From: a virus
Length of the DNA stretch: 29,620 nucleotides
Virus record (IMG/VR): IMGVR_UViG_3300039412_000321
Location: 1 to 29,620 of that record
Strand: one strand, 5' to 3'
In this document: in pieces, positions 1 through 28,316 of the stretch
Layout: the number at the start of each line of letters is the position of its first letter
Numbering within the stretch: the stretch's first letter is position 1
Translations under genes and position numbers: made by a program
The notes under the pieces: model-generated
Told to the model about the DNA's origin: nothing
Database searches by the model: none
Seen by the model: the letters and a program-made list of their open reading frames with translations, nothing else

Positions 1-344
1 TCTTCCTCGATATGTTGTGGAAGCACCAAAAACGCATCGGGGTCAATATATATTCTTGATGCTGCCCAAGGAAACATATTATCAGTTTCTTGTATCTCTT
101 TTAGCAGAGATTGCATATCCAAAACCATTCCTGCCCCAAGAAAAGCTTTATTGGTAGGTAAAGAAAAATCAGCAGCCGGAACCATATGACGAACTATTTT
201 AGTGCCGTTATGATATATTGTATGACCAGCGTTGCCACTTCCAGAAAATCTCACAATGAAATCATAGTCTTTGGCAAAAACATTTACTGCTCTCGATTTT
301 GCCTCATCACCCATAAAAGTTCCAAGAACTGCGATATTATTCAT
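1..344 (-). CDS. purA: adenylosuccinate synthetase-like protein (PurA/PurZ family), N-terminal part
   Basis: The gene runs off the left edge; only the first 114 or so residues are visible. The start has a clear SD (AGGAGA, 5 nt before ATG). The family couples GTP hydrolysis to joining IMP (PurA) or dGMP (PurZ) with aspartate. Visible landmarks are GTFMGDEAKS near residues 8-17, matching the PurA WGDEGKG loop, then VRFSGSGNAGHT with the catalytic His, and a G-x-G-M-V-L segment. The loop Asp that PurA uses as catalytic base is kept; published PurZ enzymes of 2-aminoadenine phages replace it. That favours ordinary AMP synthesis, but the loop is atypical (A and S where PurA has glycines) and the decisive C-terminal residues are outside the window. 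Confidence 0.85.
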   Translation of the reverse strand, partial: MNNIAVLGTFMGDEAKSRAVNVFAKDYDFIVRFSGSGNAGHTIYHNGTKIVRHMVPAADFSLPTNKAFLGAGMVLDMQSLLKEIQETDNMFPWAASRIYIDPDAFLVLPQHIEE

Positions 345-8060: not shown

Positions 8061-9461
8061 ATGCCATATACAGCAGAAGAACTTTTAATCATTGCTTCTA
8101 ATTTCGATGATCTAGCTACCGATTCTCTATTAAAAGAAGCCAAAGGTAAGTTTCCATTCTGGCTCAAAAAGAAAGACAAGAATGAAGATGATGGCAAAAA
8201 GTCAGACTCCAATAAGGTTGATGACAACGATGCAAAGAAAAAGAAGCTTGATCCAAAGGCAAAGGTAAGAAATCGCGGAACCGCCTGCGTTCCTGCTGAA
8301 CGAGCAAAAGATAAGAAAGATCACTTTCCAATCAATGATATTGGCCAAGCACGTAATGCATTAGCCCGAGTTCATCAATATAGTTCTGTTCCATCTTGGT
8401 ATAATGGGAGTCTTAAAGGACTTCAATCATTGGTTAGCGGCAAGGTTCATGCCAAATATCCAAGCATTGGCAAAGCCGATAGCGGAAAGAAAAAGAAGAG
8501 TTGCGACATTTATGTTAATGAAAGCCTTCTTAATAAGTATGCAGAAGATCTATATAAACAAGAATTAAACGCACAGTCTCCGTCAGAAATTGAGGAATGG
8601 CATAATACTCCAGAAGGACGAGCATGGCATAAGACACCAGAAGGACAAGCGTGGCTTAAAACACCAGATGGGCAAGCATGGCAAAAAACGCAAACATATA
8701 TTTCACCACCGGATTTTGATGCTGCATGTCCTGGTAGATATCAAGAAACATCGGATGGTGGATATTGTGCTCCACCATCATCGGCATTAGATAATGCTTT
8801 TGATAAGATGATTAAGAAATATGCATTAGTAGCTGGTGTTCCAGACCAAACTTCTTCGCCAGAAGATATTCTTAAATATCTGCAAAACGAAAGTCCAAGC
8901 TCTAAAACTGGCCAAATGGAAGCTTTAAGAAGAATGCTAGATGTTACTAAAAAAATAACTGACGAACAATATAAACAAGTATTTGAGATGATTTGGTCGC
9001 CAGATCAAAAAACATCACCAACGCACATTCTTCAATATATACAAAATATGAGTCCAAAATCTAAGACCGAGCAAATAGAAGTTTTAAGAAAATTACTTGA
9101 TACTAAACGAATAATTGACGAGCAATACAAACAGGTATTTAATATGTTGTGGCCAGGATCAAAACAACCTCTTCCTGCTACAACACACGCTCATCAACCT
9201 GTAACAACAATGTATGGATATCCATCAATAGAACTACAAAAAGCACTTGCGTTTATAGGAGATCCAGATATTAGTGATCAACTTATGGTAGGCGCACGCG
9301 ATCCATCAAAAAGAGGAATGGATGGCGATTGGGGTAAAAGCTCAGAGGCCGCTCTAAAACTTTATGCAACAAAATATAGATTACAAGATCAAGCCAGCGC
9401 AGCAAAACACCTTATGTCTTGGTATAAGACAACCGCCACCCCACCTTCACCAGCCAAATAA
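8061..9461 (+). CDS. modular protein with HFPI/ARNAL region, repeats and PG-binding-like C-terminus
   Basis: 466 residues; SD GAGGAC 8 nt before ATG. Order of parts: N-terminal motif YTAEELLIIASNF (3-15) shared with the next gene; Lys/Asp-rich linker (35-70); a module with DHFPI...QARNALARVHQY...WY.GSL...KYPSI (87-136) of a kind seen in phage- and prophage-encoded proteins; four 9-residue W-x-x-TP-E/D-G-Q/R-A repeats (180-207); two approximately 53-residue repeats (264-369); and a peptidoglycan-binding-like module (about 389-455) with the D-x-x-WG-x-x-S-x-x-A pattern. Together with the next gene it forms the only plus-strand operon here. A virion or head-internal protein is plausible; that is inference. 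No signal peptide. Confidence 0.75.
   Translation: MPYTAEELLIIASNFDDLATDSLLKEAKGKFPFWLKKKDKNEDDGKKSDSNKVDDNDAKKKKLDPKAKVRNRGTACVPAERAKDKKDHFPINDIGQARNALARVHQYSSVPSWYNGSLKGLQSLVSGKVHAKYPSIGKADSGKKKKSCDIYVNESLLNKYAEDLYKQELNAQSPSEIEEWHNTPEGRAWHKTPEGQAWLKTPDGQAWQKTQTYISPPDFDAACPGRYQETSDGGYCAPPSSALDNAFDKMIKKYALVAGVPDQTSSPEDILKYLQNESPSSKTGQMEALRRMLDVTKKITDEQYKQVFEMIWSPDQKTSPTHILQYIQNMSPKSKTEQIEVLRKLLDTKRIIDEQYKQVFNMLWPGSKQPLPATTHAHQPVTTMYGYPSIELQKALAFIGDPDISDQLMVGARDPSKRGMDGDWGKSSEAALKLYATKYRLQDQASAAKHLMSWYKTTATPPSPAK
8598..8681 (+). repeat. 27-bp tandem coding repeats (W-x-x-TP-EG-x-A)
   Basis: Three full 27-bp units plus a partial fourth encode W-[HL]-[NK]-TP-[ED]-G-[RQ]-A. The units are in frame and nearly identical at protein level, which points to recent slippage expansion. 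The tryptophan spacing of nine suggests a repeated short structural or binding element. Confidence 0.8.
8850..9167 (+). repeat. two approximately 53-residue internal protein repeats
   Basis: Residues 264-317 and 318-369 align along their length: TSSPEDILKYLQN / TSPTHILQYIQN, SPSSKTGQMEALRRMLD / SPKSKTEQIEVLRKLLD, and ITDEQYKQVFEMIW / IIDEQYKQVFNMLW. Each looks like a small helical unit. No matching domain family is recognised. Confidence 0.85.
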
Positions 9462-9473
9462 AGGCAATTAATT

Positions 9474-10628
9474 ATGATATATTCAGCTGATGAACTCATT
9501 ATCATTGCAAGCAATTATGAAATAATTGCCTGTGGCAATATGAAAAAAACAGGCATAGTTGTGTCTGATGATTTGCTTATGAAATATGGTGCGCCACCAA
9601 CTGATATATATAATAGAATATATTCTAAATTTATTTATTGCATATATAAACATCCTCACAAACCAGCTGATGTACAAAAAGCATTGCATGATCTTGGACC
9701 AGAATATATTAAAAAATTAATGCTTAGGGCTAATAATCCATCAAAAGAGGGAATAGATAATTCTTGGGGCGAAGGATCTGAAAATGCACTAAAATTATAT
9801 ATGACAAATAATGGTTTTAATCCAGATAATGGTGAAGACCAATTAAAAGCAGTAGCAAAACTAATGCATTGCACGGGGAAAATCGAAGAGAAAAAAGATT
9901 CGCCACAAGATAGATTTAATCCTTGGGAAGTTAGCGCCATGATTCAGCGAGCAAGCCAAACATTATTAATGTGTGCTGAAGATCAAAAAGCCGGGAAAAT
10001 AACGCCAGAAACTGCCGATTCATATATAAATAGATTACAAGATATCAATGATTATATTTTGCCATATAGTAATCAAATTAATCAAATAATAAAGAATAAT
10101 TATGTTGGGCAAAATAAAGGATCAATTGATCAATATAGGGCCGCAATAGATGAATTAATGAGAAACGCAACAGATTGGTTTAAGTCCTTAAACGATCTTA
10201 AAAAACAACCAAAACAGGCACCTCAACAGCTTGGCCAACAAACTTCTCCACAACAACAAGAACAATCATTACCTCCACCACAATTTGATCCCAATGAACA
10301 GCCTCCAATTGGCCCACCAGAAGATGATTGGTATGAAGTCGGCGGCCTTTTCTATTCACCAGCTGGAGCATGGGTTTGGTTCAGAAATCAATGGAGACGC
10401 AACCCATATAGAATGGTTCCATCGGGCGGAAGAAGGGGCGGAAAAACAAGCCAACCAGTTGCAGCAAAACAATATGCTCCTACCGGAACAAGATATTTGG
10501 CTAATCCAACCGTGCAGCCCACTACACAACAAAGAACCTCTTATATCCCGGCAAGACCATCAGTCGGCCCAAGATCAGTAGGTAGAGGCGGATTTGGTGG
10601 AGGACGTGGCGGTGGCGGACATCGCTAA
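9474..10628 (+). CDS. protein with shared N-terminal motif, PG-binding-like module and RGG-rich tail
   Basis: 384 residues; SD AAAGG before the ATG, 12 nt after the previous gene. The N-terminus YSADELIIIASNY repeats the motif that opens the upstream protein. Residues about 64-131 match the upstream PG-binding-like module (ANNPSKEGIDNSWGEGSEN... against ARDPSKRGMDGDWGKSSEA...). Then come a helical region (150-245), a Gln/Pro-rich linker (245-283), a compact aromatic segment DDWYEVGGLFYSPAGAWVWF (284-303) and a basic Gly/Arg-rich tail ending GGFGGGRGGGGHR. The two genes look like diverged relatives sharing ends of the same architecture. A structural or packaged protein is possible, not shown. 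Confidence 0.75.
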   Translation: MIYSADELIIIASNYEIIACGNMKKTGIVVSDDLLMKYGAPPTDIYNRIYSKFIYCIYKHPHKPADVQKALHDLGPEYIKKLMLRANNPSKEGIDNSWGEGSENALKLYMTNNGFNPDNGEDQLKAVAKLMHCTGKIEEKKDSPQDRFNPWEVSAMIQRASQTLLMCAEDQKAGKITPETADSYINRLQDINDYILPYSNQINQIIKNNYVGQNKGSIDQYRAAIDELMRNATDWFKSLNDLKKQPKQAPQQLGQQTSPQQQEQSLPPPQFDPNEQPPIGPPEDDWYEVGGLFYSPAGAWVWFRNQWRRNPYRMVPSGGRRGGKTSQPVAAKQYAPTGTRYLANPTVQPTTQQRTSYIPARPSVGPRSVGRGGFGGGRGGGGHR

Positions 10629-10632
10629 TTAA

Positions 10633-11084
10633 TTACCAGTCACAATCAAGCTCTAATAGATATTCTAATCTTTGCTGCTTAATATCATAAATTACAAATT
10701 CGTGATCGTCAAATTCCGATCCAGACTTGGACGGATTACCATGGCAACTATCAAATCCTTTCGGGGGCTATTTAATCCATAGGTAATTTCCGTATATTCT
10801 TTAATCTTACCAAGCGCGACATTTGCTACTCCAATAAATGTTGAGCCTGATCTGCCGCTTGAAGCATAGTTCAATGCGGTTGAAATAGAATCGCCAAAGT
10901 AAATACCGTGTCCTAGCCATCCTTGATCTGTTCTATGAACGCCAAGCTTGACAACCTGTTTTGGCAAAAGTAATCCACGAGATAGAATACCAACCCAATT
11001 GTGAGCCCCTGAGCCATGGAATAGTAACTTGTCATTGCCAATCTTCGTATTATACTCTGTATATTCCGGTTCTCGTTCACTCAT
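10633..11084 (-). CDS. PARP-like ADP-ribosyltransferase, frameshifted at a C5 run
   Basis: The start is ATG 11084 (SD GAGGA), overlapping the upstream gene by 8 nt. It matches PARP catalytic domains: LLFHGSGAHNWVGILSRGLL with the NAD-binding His23, then GWLGHGIYFGDSISTALNYAS with Tyr62. The frame as read ends at 10692 with an unrelated tail. One base off, after the C5 run at 10763-10767, the frame continues as PPKGFDSCHG...DDHEFVIYDIKQQRLEYL and stops at 10633; this is the normal PARP C-terminus, including the catalytic Glu129 in HEFVIYD. Restoring one C gives 150 residues with a full H-Y-E triad. Possible causes are a real mutation, an assembly error in the homopolymer, or -1 slippage of the CCC codon. 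Confidence 0.85.
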
Positions 11085-12249
11085 ATTCGTCCTCATCATC
11101 AAATGACCAACAATGGTCTTTATTCCACTCATCACCACATATACAATGGGAAACTCCCTTTATATGCAAAAGATGGCTTTCACAATTTGCGTCATAACAC
11201 TGCTTGTGTTCTATTGCGGGCTTTACGTTTTTTATATCATCTGGCTCAGGCGAACCATATCCTGCAATCTCCTGCTCCTCAATCAATCTCATAAATTGGT
11301 CGTGCAATTGTTGAGATTCAAGATTTCTTTTGAGATATACTAGTCCAACGTATTGACCGCCAAGAATACCAAGCGTCTCATATTTTACCTTAATTTTTCC
11401 GAAAATTATAGTATTAATTGCTGCCGCCAAAGCAGCAATCTCATTTTCTGAATCAAATAGTAATACTACTGGCAAATTAACTTCGATTGTTTTTGGTTTT
11501 ATTTTTAACATTTCTCTTCTATTTCCATCTAAAATGTTTTGTTTTGCAGAATAAGGCCGCAAATTACCCAAATCCCAACATATCTTAAAATTTTCATCTT
11601 TCATTGATGTATAAGGAAGCTGAGACTGCGGAATTATATGATCTATATTCCATACCCATGTTGATTGATCATTGTCATCCCATAATTCTGCTTTATAATT
11701 ACCCCAATTATTCCAATTCATCCATTCATTACCAGTCTCATTAAATTGTTCTTCAATATGAAGAACAAATTCTTCCATTGAATATGGAATATATTTTGTA
11801 ATAGACTGCCCATTTTTTGACGATAAATTACGTTTTAAAGCTAATAGAATTGCCGAAGAAAGATTTTTTCTCGCCTTTACACTTGGATTATTTTCTTTTC
11901 GTTCTTTGACTTTTTTGTTTATTTTGTTTCTATTATTTTTAGAATAATCGCCAGTTCTCGCTTTTATTTTATATGTATTATTCAAGTAATATTGTTTTCT
12001 ATATTTTTTTCGCTCATCAAAATGATCTTCATCATATTTCTTTTGTTTAAAATCTAGTTCTTCTCTATTGTTTTGATAATACTGATGGTTATATTCTTTA
12101 ATTTTTTCTTTATGAGAGTCTCTATAAGCCTTGTCTTTTGCTTGCAATTTTTCTTTATTTTTATTTCTATAATCCTTGTTATAATGTTTTATACAAAAAC
12201 CCGCCCTTTTACTTTCTGCATTACATTTAGATATTTTACACTTAATCAT
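11077..12249 (-). CDS. HNH homing endonuclease fused in frame to an unknown downstream protein
   Basis: 390 residues from ATG 12249 (SD TTGGAG). Residues 1-246 are an HNH nuclease: N-terminal CxxxxC...CIKHY finger, Lys/Tyr/Asn-rich repeats of the YRxxNKEK type, then HNH core WNIDHIIPQSQLPY...LGNLRPYSAKQNILDGN. The family normally ends there. The frame continues from a methionine at 11511, preceded by AGAAGAGAA, into a 144-residue region (hydrophobic LPVVLLFDSENEIAALAAA, then CYDANC...CICGDEW zinc-finger-like, acidic end). That part is probably a separate ancestral phage gene that the endonuclease now reads into; it may still be translated alone from 11511. It overlaps the PARP-like gene by 8 nt. 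Confidence 0.8.
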   Translation of the reverse strand: MIKCKISKCNAESKRAGFCIKHYNKDYRNKNKEKLQAKDKAYRDSHKEKIKEYNHQYYQNNREELDFKQKKYDEDHFDERKKYRKQYYLNNTYKIKARTGDYSKNNRNKINKKVKERKENNPSVKARKNLSSAILLALKRNLSSKNGQSITKYIPYSMEEFVLHIEEQFNETGNEWMNWNNWGNYKAELWDDNDQSTWVWNIDHIIPQSQLPYTSMKDENFKICWDLGNLRPYSAKQNILDGNRREMLKIKPKTIEVNLPVVLLFDSENEIAALAAAINTIIFGKIKVKYETLGILGGQYVGLVYLKRNLESQQLHDQFMRLIEEQEIAGYGSPEPDDIKNVKPAIEHKQCYDANCESHLLHIKGVSHCICGDEWNKDHCWSFDDEDEYE

Positions 12250-12277
12250 GGCGGCTCCAACATATGTAATTATATCT

Positions 12278-12925
12278 TCATATTTCAATCACCACCGGTT
12301 TATTAACCGCTTCATACTTTTCATTGCAGACACTGGCATTAATATATTTAACGCCATTTAGCTCGACTTGGCCATAATCTGCGTGGATATGTCCAAAAAC
12401 ATGAACTTTTAGTTTTTTTAACTCGCCAATTCGATTTAATAAATCAACACAGCCAACATTCTCGAACTGATCAAATCCTCTTGGAGCCTTATCTAGAATT
12501 GAATAAGGAGGCCCATGAGTAACCAATACGTTAGTATCATCTGGAATCATTTTCCAATGATACGCTATATCTTCGCCTCTTTGCCTATTATATTCCCATG
12601 CAAAGAAATATGGTGTAATGGCCGAACCCCATATTTTTATTCCTTCAATATCAATGCCACTATCCTGCAAATAAATTATACCAGCATCAGACAGCATTTT
12701 AAGCCCAAGCGCTCGTTTTGGACCATTTTCATGGCCTAATTCATGATTGCCGTGAATACATATTTTATATCGTGCTGGCAATTCTTGCATCCATATAGAA
12801 AAGTCTTCTATCATGTCTAATTCGCCACGAAAAGTTATGTCTCCTGCATGAATCAAAATATCACATTCAGGTATATCTATCATCTTATGATTTGTATGTG
12901 TATCAGATATTAATACTAGTTTCAT
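12278..12925 (-). CDS. calcineurin-like metallophosphoesterase
   Basis: 215 residues, SD AAGGA. All signature blocks are present in order: D8-T-H10 (ISDTHTNH), HAGD (GD near 28-29), GNHE, VTHGPPY, and GHIH near the C-terminus. These ligate two metal ions; the family hydrolyses phosphomono- or diesters. Similarity is to small YfcE-like/bacterial phosphoesterases rather than to Mre11/SbcD. The substrate cannot be told. The start codon lies in the last codons of the upstream HNH gene (ATGA overlap) and its SD is within that gene. Confidence 0.9.
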   Translation of the reverse strand: MKLVLISDTHTNHKMIDIPECDILIHAGDITFRGELDMIEDFSIWMQELPARYKICIHGNHELGHENGPKRALGLKMLSDAGIIYLQDSGIDIEGIKIWGSAITPYFFAWEYNRQRGEDIAYHWKMIPDDTNVLVTHGPPYSILDKAPRGFDQFENVGCVDLLNRIGELKKLKVHVFGHIHADYGQVELNGVKYINASVCNEKYEAVNKPVVIEI

Positions 12926-16572: not shown

Positions 16573-17058
16573 CTACTCGTCTCCCTCACGCCGATAAATT
16601 ACAACTCGAACACCCTTTGTAGATAGAAATTGCTCCATATTCACTATTTTACCTAATATATGCGACCAGTCTGCGCCTGCTATGCCTGCTCCAACACGCC
16701 ACGGGAATGCTATACTTTCAAGATCGGGGATTTGAGCTACACGTAGCAGGCCATGATAAAAGTATTTCTCACGAGCCGCAAGACCGTCTAAACTTGAAAG
16801 TGGGAAACGGGCTCCACCTGGATAGAATTGTCCGTGTAGATTGATAATAAATCGTTCATCAATTCCATTTCCACGAATATCAATTGTTCCAGGTTTGCTT
16901 GTCTCTTCTCTATCAGAATAGCAATCAGCATATGGATACTTCTCAAAAATCAATTGAGCAATACCTGCCGCTCCCCCTGTTGATATACAGTTGGTCTGAT
17001 GGCAGATATACTTTTCTGTTGCGTCAAGTAAATCGCCAGTAATTATTTCAATAGCCAT
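16573..17058 (-). CDS. macro-domain protein (ADP-ribose binding/hydrolase)
   Basis: 161 residues, essentially one macro domain. It opens with IEIITGDLLDATEKYICHQTNC, followed by GGAAGIAQLIFEKYP (ligand loop 1) and ends with FPWRVGAGIAGADWSHI (loop 2). The ICHQTNC...GGAAGIA pattern resembles the TARG1/ALC1-like and DarG-type macrodomains, several of which remove ADP-ribose from DNA or acidic residues. It begins 2 nt after the previous stop. Together with NADAR, PARP and WGR it forms an ADP-ribose-related gene set. Binding of ADP-ribose or ADP-ribose-1''-phosphate processing are alternatives. Confidence 0.88.
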   Translation of the reverse strand: MAIEIITGDLLDATEKYICHQTNCISTGGAAGIAQLIFEKYPYADCYSDREETSKPGTIDIRGNGIDERFIINLHGQFYPGGARFPLSSLDGLAAREKYFYHGLLRVAQIPDLESIAFPWRVGAGIAGADWSHILGKIVNMEQFLSTKGVRVVIYRREGDE

Positions 17059-18359: not shown

Positions 18360-19075
18360 TTAGGTTCGTGAGACAGCTAGCCACCAACCAATTTGTGGTT
18401 TTGCGATATTGAGTTTTACACTTAATGTGTGAAGCTTATCATTCCATTTAGGATCTATAATTAGCTGATTTGTAGTAATCGGCCTATCATAGTCATCAAA
18501 ATCACATTTAGTTATGACACTTTTAGCAATACATAGAAATATCGGATAAGGATCTGATTCATCTAAATAATTCCAATCACCGGACCAAACAATCTTAAAG
18601 CCTTAAACTCTTGGGTAACGCCGAACCAAGTTCTAATCAAATCTTGAACATTGGTATGCAATTTGCTTACAACTGCCGGTTCCTCAACAACCTTTGCTCC
18701 CATCTTCTTCAAGGACTCAACAGAAACAGTCTGATCAATCTTGCTCTTACCAACATCTGAACCAACATCGGCTTTTGCTAACTTAACCTCAACATAGCCC
18801 TTCTTGGTCTTGGACTTAACAATCTTCTCTGCTTCGTTCTCTGCTTCTGCCTGATTATAGCAAGAACGGTATTCCTTTGCTGGATTTGGCGCCCCTACCC
18901 GTCCATAAACTGTAAAGATATAAAACGCTCCATTACTTGCCTTAACAAGCTCTAAATTGTAATACTTATTGTTATTGTTGATAATGTCTGTGAAATTAAG
19001 CGTCCATCGCTTAATAGACTCAACAACCTTAATAGAGCTAATAACAGATTGATCTTTAATTACTTGCAATGTCAT
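18360..19075 (-). CDS. WGR-domain protein, apparently frameshifted
   Basis: ATG 19075 overlaps the lipoprotein stop (ATGA). Residues about 35-100 form a WGR domain: YYNLELVKASNGAFYIFTVYGRVG...KTKKGYVEV. WGR domains in PARPs bind DNA and pass activation to the catalytic domain. Then comes SKLHTNVQDLIRTWFGV, similar to the start of the PARP helical regulatory domain. The frame read from the start stops at 18563 after LRLFGPVIGII. The -1 frame is open from 18602 to the stop at 18360 (GFKIVWSGDWNYLDESDPYP... to GWWLAVSRT, 80 residues) with no ATG, GTG or TTG. One extra A near 18604 would join them into 238 residues. An independent gene starting at ATT 18593 (AAGG 7 nt before) is an alternative. 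Confidence 0.7.
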
Positions 19076-19371
19076 TTTACAGTTCTCACAACTTTCTTCT
19101 TTTGTTTGTCCCAAATATATTTGATTATGATGCTTCCGCCCTTTTCATCTAGTTCATTTTGGGTGGAATACAAACATATCATTAAGTTTTCTTGATATGG
19201 CCAGCAACAATTAGCCGCATACGTTGCGCCTCCGGTATAACAGCTAAACTCTTTATCGGAGCTTTGTATAATCATATGATGCTCAATAGGAGTTATCTTA
19301 AAGAAAGGCCCAGAACAGCCTAATATAAGTAGTGTAGCTAATACTAGCCACATGAATAGCACTTGTCTCAT
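19072..19371 (-). CDS. small lipoprotein, 99 aa
   Basis: 99 residues from ATG 19371. N-terminus MRQVLFMWLVLATLLILGC is a short lipoprotein signal peptide with lipobox LILGC, cleavage before Cys19, so the protein should be a membrane-anchored lipoprotein. The mature part has several Cys (CYTGG...NCCW) and ends with a basic segment. The -10 element of P3 ends just 7 nt before the ATG, so the mRNA may have no leader and no SD. A start at ATG 19350 (MWLVLA) is possible but lacks the basic residue usual at the N-terminus. Confidence 0.75.
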   Translation of the reverse strand: MRQVLFMWLVLATLLILGCSGPFFKITPIEHHMIIQSSDKEFSCYTGGATYAANCCWPYQENLMICLYSTQNELDEKGGSIIIKYIWDKQKKKVVRTVK

Positions 19372-26674: not shown

Positions 26675-27499
26675 TTAAGTCGTTGGTTGGTTTGCAGTTG
26701 CTTCCGGCGTTTTTTCCTTCGTAATGAGCGGCGGTTTTTCGCCAAAGAAGAAGACGTGATCATCAATATAGTCCCTATTCTGTGAGAAAATTGGAATATT
26801 ATCATCAACAACCCACGCTGAACGCATAACCTTCGTTACTTCGCCAGTAATGGCGTTGATTGCTTCCTTTTCGGTTGTCTGCTTAACAATACAGCGGCCT
26901 CTCTTTTGTGAGGCGGGGCAATCATTCCAGTTAATTCCCTTCTTGAAAATAAGTTCTTGAAGCTCTGAGCAGCTTTTGTTATTACATTGTTTGTGAGAAT
27001 ATAATGATCGAGCAAGCATTTGGATTGAATTACGAGTAGCGTCCTGTTGGCGCCATAATAGGGCATTGCATACCTCTTCTTTTGGAAGGACAAAAGCACG
27101 AGCATCAAATGTGACAATTTTACTTACTCTAAATATCTTCCAAGAATTTGCTGTAAAATATGCACTTGCCATAGATGCTGCAACACTAACCATTTTTTGT
27201 AAATTACCATCAAACCAACTTTGTGAATTAATATCTTTGTAGTTACAAATTAACAATGATATTTCGTCTGACTGTAAATAAGCTAGCTGAACCCCCTGAA
27301 TATTTTCACAAAGATATTTTGCCGTATCATTCATAACTGATACAAGGTTTCCCTCTATTGGTTTAGTAAGTCCTTTGGTCAAACTATGCCATGCAACACC
27401 ATCTAATCTAATTAAAATAGGCATTCTTTTCGGAAGCTTTATACGATAAGCGTCCTCATAATTTGCCTTCATCCTATCTCCAAGCGAATCTTTATTCAT
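26675..27499 (-). CDS. thg1: Thg1-like 3'-5' nucleotidyltransferase (TLP)
   Basis: 274 residues from ATG 27499 (SD GAGGG, inside the preceding LAGLIDADG gene). The start matches the family: NKDSLGDRMKANYEDAYR, with RLDG (D33) and QSDE (D78, E79) as the metal-binding carboxylates shared with other polymerases. Thg1 adds G-1 to tRNA-His in eukaryotes; bacterial and viral TLPs extend or repair tRNA 5' ends in the 3'-5' direction. The C-terminus is long and Pro/Thr-rich at its end. In this phage it may repair host or phage tRNAs damaged by nucleases; substrate is inferred. Confidence 0.9.
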   Translation of the reverse strand: MNKDSLGDRMKANYEDAYRIKLPKRMPILIRLDGVAWHSLTKGLTKPIEGNLVSVMNDTAKYLCENIQGVQLAYLQSDEISLLICNYKDINSQSWFDGNLQKMVSVAASMASAYFTANSWKIFRVSKIVTFDARAFVLPKEEVCNALLWRQQDATRNSIQMLARSLYSHKQCNNKSCSELQELIFKKGINWNDCPASQKRGRCIVKQTTEKEAINAITGEVTKVMRSAWVVDDNIPIFSQNRDYIDDHVFFFGEKPPLITKEKTPEATANQPTT

Positions 27500-28316
27500 A
27501 ATATCCCTCAATAAAATTGAAAAATCTACTATATTTTCTGTCAAGCCTATTATTTGGATCAATATTATCCATCATATAATGTAATATTTTCATAGCATTT
27601 ATTCCGCTGTAAGCAATGTATCCCATTTCTTCTGTAAATTCGTGAGGTATAATCGGAGCATATTTGTTTTTTGATTTTAATCGAACTCCGATATTATAAA
27701 AAATTTCTCTCAAAAAAACAAGAAATGTAATTGTGCCAATAAAAGAAATCTGTGGAATTTCTCTCCCATTTTTTTGGTAAAGAATTTCTATACTTCCATC
27801 ACCATCAAAATAACCTCTAATTAAATGCGGCCAATATTCTTGTGGCACTTGTTCGGGAAAAGAGGCAGTTAAGGACTTCTTTGGCCCTATTGAAAAGTTA
27901 TCTTTTAACGCTAATGGATACCATTCACCAGCAACTGAAATTGAATATGCTTTGCTACATTTATCATATTGAAGATTACCGTTAAAATTAATTGCCTTAG
28001 CAAATTTCAATAAATGTTCCTTGTCGCTTTCCATCAAATGGATTTCTAATGCATCTCTGTCAGATCTAATACAGCCATCAGCTAATATAAATCCTGCCCA
28101 ATAACAATTTTCGTCAGTATATTCATTAAAATACTTTACATTGTACTTATTTTTATAAGGAGATGTTTTTCTTAAACGAATACTATTTTTGATGAGATAT
28201 TTTTGTACAGTTGTTCTGTGTATTTTTAGTATGCGAGCAATTTCATTAGTACCGGTACCATTATCGTATAATTCACAAATATATTTTTCTTTATCTACGG
28301 AAATCTTAGTTTTCAT
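27492..28316 (-). CDS. LAGLIDADG homing endonuclease
   Basis: 274 residues. The N-terminal HTH (TNEIARILKIHRTTVQKYLIK) and two helices WAGFILADGCI and IRGYFDGDGSI mark the same subfamily as the protein at 15661-16506. Last codons ATT-GAG-GGA-TAT-TAT-GAA-TAA include the Thg1 SD and start (8-nt overlap), a clear case of a nuclease gene ending at its neighbour's start. SD of its own is weak. Confidence 0.9.
   Translation of the reverse strand: MKTKISVDKEKYICELYDNGTGTNEIARILKIHRTTVQKYLIKNSIRLRKTSPYKNKYNVKYFNEYTDENCYWAGFILADGCIRSDRDALEIHLMESDKEHLLKFAKAINFNGNLQYDKCSKAYSISVAGEWYPLALKDNFSIGPKKSLTASFPEQVPQEYWPHLIRGYFDGDGSIEILYQKNGREIPQISFIGTITFLVFLREIFYNIGVRLKSKNKYAPIIPHEFTEEMGYIAYSGINAMKILHYMMDNIDPNNRLDRKYSRFFNFIEGYYE

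What the first reader, a model, noticed from the sequence alone, without database searches (positions are those of the whole stretch)
10633..11084. PARP catalytic domain broken by one base at a C5 run; catalytic Glu only in the shifted frame
Reading in the start frame gives His23 and Tyr62 but an unrelated C-terminus. Shifting by one base at 10763-10767 gives PPKGFDSCHG and HEFVIYD, the ordinary PARP end, with the catalytic Glu. The full 150-residue protein is restored by a single C. The alternatives (inactivating mutation, homopolymer error, programmed slippage of CCC) have different biology; slippage would couple ADP-ribosyltransferase activity to a recoding event.
Basis: partly seen in the sequence, partly recalled or inferred. 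Interest (0 to 1): 0.82.

Follow-up and report, generated by a model that had tools for sequence, protein, structure and literature searches.

The report
Decaying phage PARP gene, frame broken
A phage gene for an ADP-ribosylating enzyme has lost its regulatory domains and then its reading frame just before the catalytic residue; related phages and bacteria carry intact copies, so this looks like ordinary gene decay (or a one-base sequence error), not a new way of reading the code.

Summary
On the minus strand, ORF 11084-10692 encodes a PARP catalytic domain with His23 and Tyr62. At the C5 run 10763-10767 the PARP reading continues in the -1 frame, where the catalytic Glu (10699-10701) lies. 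The recoding reading is not supported. The nearest relative, a 252-kb phage contig (G002) syntenic with the window, encodes the same protein (71-77% identical) in one frame with no C run at the site. All 80 PARP loci retrieved from viral contigs are unbroken, as are 21 of 22 bacterial loci. No stable structure follows the run. The one bacterial break at the same Pro-Pro motif (Tautonia sociabilis, C9) goes in the opposite direction. The wider picture is gene decay. G002 has two full WGR-PRD-CAT PARPs. In the window, PARP-A is cut to its WGR domain by a deletion that also removed the start of the next gene. PARP-B is cut to its catalytic domain and then frame-broken. A third phage (G009) carries a PARP-B with a large internal deletion; a fourth (G012) has an intact catalytic-domain-only copy. 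Every testable invariant residue is retained, so the break is very recent or a one-base assembly error. Reads are needed to decide.

The parts
10692..11084 (-). PARP-B catalytic-domain ORF as read (130 aa): His23 and Tyr62 present, unrelated C-terminus after the run
10763..10767 (-). C5 run where the PARP reading changes frame by -1 (conserved Pro-Pro motif)
10633..10767 (-). Remainder of the catalytic domain in the -1 frame (PPKGFDSCHG...HEFVIYD...), with stop
10699..10701 (-). Codon of the catalytic Glu (aligned with Glu447 of the intact G002 protein), only in the shifted frame
11090..11094 (-). Shine-Dalgarno-like GAGGA 5 nt before the ATG of the catalytic-domain ORF
   Evidence: read
11077..11511 (-). 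Gene X, now abutting the PARP-B remnant; in G002 its homologue lies about 3.7 kb upstream of full-length PARP-B, with four other ORFs between
18563..19114 (-). PARP-A remnant: WGR domain only, 67% identical to residues 26-165 of the G002 PARP-A ORF; homology stops at 18590
18360..18590 (-). 3' part of the gene that follows PARP-A in related phages, joined to the WGR remnant in another frame (deletion junction)
16573..17058 (-). Macro-domain-like gene (phrog_335), syntenic in G002; possible partner of the PARPs
   Evidence: macro-domain reading from sequence motif only, no Pfam match

Best explanation
This is a decaying phage PARP. The ancestor of this phage carried two three-domain PARPs (WGR, helical regulatory domain PRD, catalytic domain CAT), as its relative G002 still does. 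In the window's lineage PARP-A was cut to its WGR domain by a deletion. PARP-B lost WGR and PRD and then, very recently, its reading frame by a one-base change at the conserved Pro-Pro codons. The product keeps His and Tyr but lacks the catalytic Glu and the last part of the ART fold, so it should be inactive. Shown: the frame change, both truncations, intact relatives. Inferred: that the lesion is real and inactivating, the order of events, and loss of activity.
For: G002 encodes PARP-B (466 aa) in one frame with no C run at the site. The window is syntenic with G002. PARP-A homology stops dead at 18590 and runs into the tail of the gene that follows PARP-A in related phages L039 and L041. 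PARP-B residues before about 325 and four intervening G002 ORFs are absent upstream of the CAT piece. A third phage, G009, has PARP-B with about 330 codons deleted and frame breaks. In 80 viral loci the CAT domain is in one frame (two cut by contig ends). Among 15 conserved segments (9.4 kb) aligned between window and G002, including six C5/G5 runs, only this gene changes frame, although it makes up about 5% of that sequence.
Against: The catalytic domain shows no sign of long neglect: all 51 testable invariant residues are kept, and third-position changes dominate on both sides of the break (55 of 88 before, 21 of 28 after). The break is therefore very recent or is a sequence error in a working gene. 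G012 carries an intact catalytic-domain-only copy starting at the same point, so domain loss alone need not mean decay.
Confidence: 0.65

Rival explanations
1. Sequencing or assembly error of one base at the C run; the real phage has an intact catalytic-domain-only PARP, like G012.
For: Full conservation on both sides of the break. A catalytic-domain-only PARP-B exists unbroken in another phage. The record is an uncultivated contig, and no second copy was found to confirm the base count.
Against: No other frame change in 9.4 kb of conserved coding sequence containing five more C5/G5 runs; C5 is a short run. The single lesion falls in a gene that is otherwise truncated.
Confidence: 0.28
2. Programmed -1 slippage of peptidyl-tRNA-Pro on C_CCC makes full-length enzyme at low level.
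For: CCC preceded by C allows re-pairing one base back; the -1 frame is conserved up to its own stop.
Against: The run is absent in the nearest relative and not conserved. No stable downstream structure (z +0.45). The A-site codon CGA cannot re-pair after the shift. The CCC shifts described in phages and antizymes in PMC5009743 are +1, not -1. The only other break at this motif goes the other way.
Confidence: 0.03
3. Reversible on/off switching (phase variation) of PARP activity by length change of the C tract at the Pro-Pro motif.
For: A second, independent frame break lies at exactly this motif in Tautonia sociabilis (C9); the Pro-Pro is invariant in ten full-length homologues, so C tracts can arise here.
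Against: C5 is short for slippage-driven switching; most homologues have at most C4 here; only two cases, in unrelated hosts.
Confidence: 0.04

Closest known systems
PARP-B of phage contig G002 (IMGVR_UViG_3300033402_000292) and its bacterial orthologues (Planctomycetota, Myxococcota and others)
   Same: Same catalytic domain, 71-77% identity to the phage copy; H-Y-E residues and PP.G...SCHG motif shared; same genomic neighbourhood in G002
   Different: They carry WGR and PRD domains and, apart from Tautonia, one unbroken frame
Catalytic-domain-only PARP-B of G012 (L103:3003-3407)
   Same: Starts at the same point (IGN..LFHG); lacks WGR and PRD
   Different: Unbroken through the Glu motif; TTG start; about 57% identity to the G002 protein
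Human PARP4 (vault PARP) catalytic region, PDB 8sx1
   Same: Best solved-structure match of the intact G002 protein (E 4e-43), including the Glu region
   Different: Eukaryotic multidomain vault protein; the window copy is broken before the Glu
Known phage PARPs: Xanthomonas phage XacN1 BBA65562.1, Stenotrophomonas phage RAS14, Cellulophaga phage phi4:1
   Same: Phage-encoded PARPs
   Different: The two read here (XacN1, RAS14) are unbroken full-length proteins, only 35-40% identical to the window piece

Membership tests
PARP / ARTD (PF00644) | Sequence match above the curated cut-off | tested here: met
   68.1 bits against cut-off 26.7 for the 130-aa ORF
PARP / ARTD (PF00644) | H-Y-E triad in one translated product | tested here: not met
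   H23 and Y62 in the ORF; Glu only in the -1 frame
PARP / ARTD (PF00644) | WGR and regulatory domains (PARP1/2-like architecture) | tested here: not met
   Absent from this gene; present in G002 PARP-A and PARP-B; the WGR of PARP-A survives alone at 18563-19114
PARP / ARTD (PF00644) | ADP-ribosyltransferase activity | not testable with these tools
   needs an assay
Programmed -1 ribosomal frameshifting | Slippery sequence conserved in relatives | tested here: not met
Programmed -1 ribosomal frameshifting | X_XXY_YYZ heptamer with both tRNAs able to re-pair | tested here: not met
   AGC CCC CGA: P-site CCC can re-pair, A-site CGA cannot (sequence)
Programmed -1 ribosomal frameshifting | Stimulatory downstream structure | tested here: not met
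   z +0.45, 133 of 200 shuffles fold at least as well; pseudoknots not tested
Pseudogene | Intact orthologue elsewhere plus inactivating lesion here | tested here: met
Pseudogene | Lesion confirmed by independent sequence | tested here: inconclusive
   No second copy in viral contigs; reads not available

The most novel reading that the evidence does not exclude
The invariant Pro-Pro codons just before the catalytic Glu of PARPs form a C tract that this phage, and at least one bacterium, use as a reversible or leaky switch for ADP-ribosyltransferase activity, by tract-length change or ribosome slippage.
Probability: 0.05. Interest if true: 0.7.

Novelty: new member of a known kind. Interest (0 to 1): 0.22.

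Why it matters
As found, it is a small piece of natural history: large phages acquire bacterial-type PARPs and also lose them piecemeal. It removes a candidate for recoding-controlled ADP-ribosylation. It points to a phage group with two complete PARPs, a macro-domain-like gene and an NMN-adenylyltransferase-like gene nearby, which would be the better system to study.

Tried and rejected
Search for near-identical contigs spanning the site with any base count: none. Downstream RNA structure: nothing above shuffles. AlphaFold model of the intact G002 protein: catalytic core below pLDDT 50, so not used. Search for PARP-B in 45 genomes of the Tautonia family and 392 of the phylum: only one further copy in each set, both unbroken (site read). 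Nucleotide search of 'phages' for half the window: only an HNH fragment. Idea that the separate WGR (18563-19114) and CAT pieces form a split enzyme: rejected as leading reading because the WGR comes from the other paralogue, ends at a deletion junction, and the CAT is frame-broken; not disproved.

Full report
What is there. The window is a 29,620-base IMG/VR virus record. It has rIIA and rIIB genes, an NAD-dependent DNA ligase and many homing-type endonucleases. On the minus strand an ORF starts at ATG 11084, behind a GAGGA ribosome-binding-like site, and ends at 10692 (130 aa). It matches the PARP catalytic domain PF00644 with E 9e-19. After the C5 run at 10763-10767 the PARP reading continues in the -1 frame to a stop at 10633 and includes the catalytic Glu at 10699-10701.

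Relatives at the site. The closest relative is a PARP in two IMG/VR contigs identical over 10 kb (G001, 80 kb; G002, 252 kb). It is 71% identical over residues 325-431, or 70 of 91 over the core, and is read in one frame. At the break site it has TCT CCT CCA AAG, with no C run. In 80 viral-contig loci found with a profile, the catalytic domain lies in one ORF every time; two are cut by the contig end. Of 22 bacterial loci, 21 are unbroken. The C run is not conserved: among 31 distinct phage sites one has C5, and among 23 further loci none exceeds C4. A conserved recoding signal is therefore excluded; a lineage-specific one is only unlikely.

One exception. In the bacterial isolate Tautonia sociabilis GM2012 the orthologue changes frame at exactly the same Pro-Pro motif, at a C9 run, in the opposite direction. 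Opposite directions argue against a shared recoding mechanism. Pro-Pro codons written as C tracts would be a natural indel hot spot, for mutation or for sequencing.

Selection. Against G002, changes fall mainly at third codon positions on both sides of the break (pre 20/13/55, post 5/2/21). Every testable residue that is invariant in ten full-length homologues is kept, 37 of 37 before and 14 of 14 after. The gene was under full constraint until very recently. This fits a fresh mutation or a base-calling or assembly error; it does not fit an old pseudogene.

The wider picture. The window is syntenic with about 28 kb of G002. G002 carries two PARPs with WGR, regulatory and catalytic domains: PARP-A (500 aa) and PARP-B (466 aa). 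In the window PARP-A survives only as its WGR domain (18563-19114). Its homology stops at 18590 and runs, in another frame, into the 3' part of the gene that follows PARP-A in related phages. This is a deletion junction. PARP-B survives only as its catalytic domain, now abutting gene X, which in G002 lies about 3.7 kb upstream with four other ORFs between. PARP-B is damaged elsewhere too: G009 has a WGR piece joined out of frame to the last 60 residues. G012 has an unbroken catalytic-domain-only copy, and catalytic-domain-only PARPs are known in bacteria (PMC4245714), so the truncated form may be functional in its own right.

Error or mutation. Across 9,446 bases of conserved coding sequence in the window, with six C5/G5 runs, this is the only frame change. 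The gene makes up about 5% of that sequence, so a random error would land here about one time in twenty. That favours decay but does not prove it. No second copy of the site was found in the viral collection.

Recoding. The frame needed is -1. Peptidyl-tRNA-Pro could re-pair one base back on C_CCC, but the next codon, CGA, could not. No structure follows the site. CCC shifts described in Listeria phages and antizymes are +1 (PMC5009743).

Classification. The intact orthologue is a bacterial-type PARP whose best solved-structure relative is human PARP4 (E 4e-43). Phage PARPs are already described (PMC7824862, PMC4245714, PMC9503650). The window's gene is a broken member of that known kind.

Noticed in passing
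L130:3260-3450 (Tautonia sociabilis GM2012, NZ_RYZH01000020): Bacterial PARP orthologue frame-broken at a C9 run at the same Pro-Pro motif, in the opposite direction to the window.
   Followed up: partly
L104:2330-2740 (G009, IMGVR_UViG_3300049217_000071): PARP-B pseudogene: WGR piece joined out of frame to the last 60 residues of the catalytic domain, with a further frame break near the N-terminus.
   Followed up: yes
L103:3003-3407 (G012, IMGVR_UViG_3300008255_002756): Unbroken catalytic-domain-only PARP of about 134 aa, starting at the same point as the window copy.
   Followed up: partly
window 16573-17058 -: Macro-domain-like gene (phrog_335), conserved and syntenic in G002: a possible ADP-ribose eraser beside the PARPs.
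   Followed up: no
L015:17621-18205 (G002): Adenylyltransferase gene, weakly like NMN adenylyltransferase, soon after PARP-B: possible NAD supply for the PARP.
   Followed up: no
window 11077-12288 -: HNH-like sequence runs in the same open frame as gene X (11077-11511); the HNH part recurs in several other phage loci.
   Followed up: partly
window 3-344 -: Start of an adenylosuccinate-synthetase-like gene (PurA or PurZ type), cut by the window end; a PurZ would suggest a modified-adenine genome.
   Followed up: no
window 26675-27562 -: tRNA-His guanylyltransferase (Thg1-like) gene, E 8e-91 to phrog_4717.
   Followed up: no
window 8061-9461 + and 9474-10628 +: Two adjacent genes appear to share a repeated segment (about 39-43% identity), so may be paralogues.
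   Followed up: no
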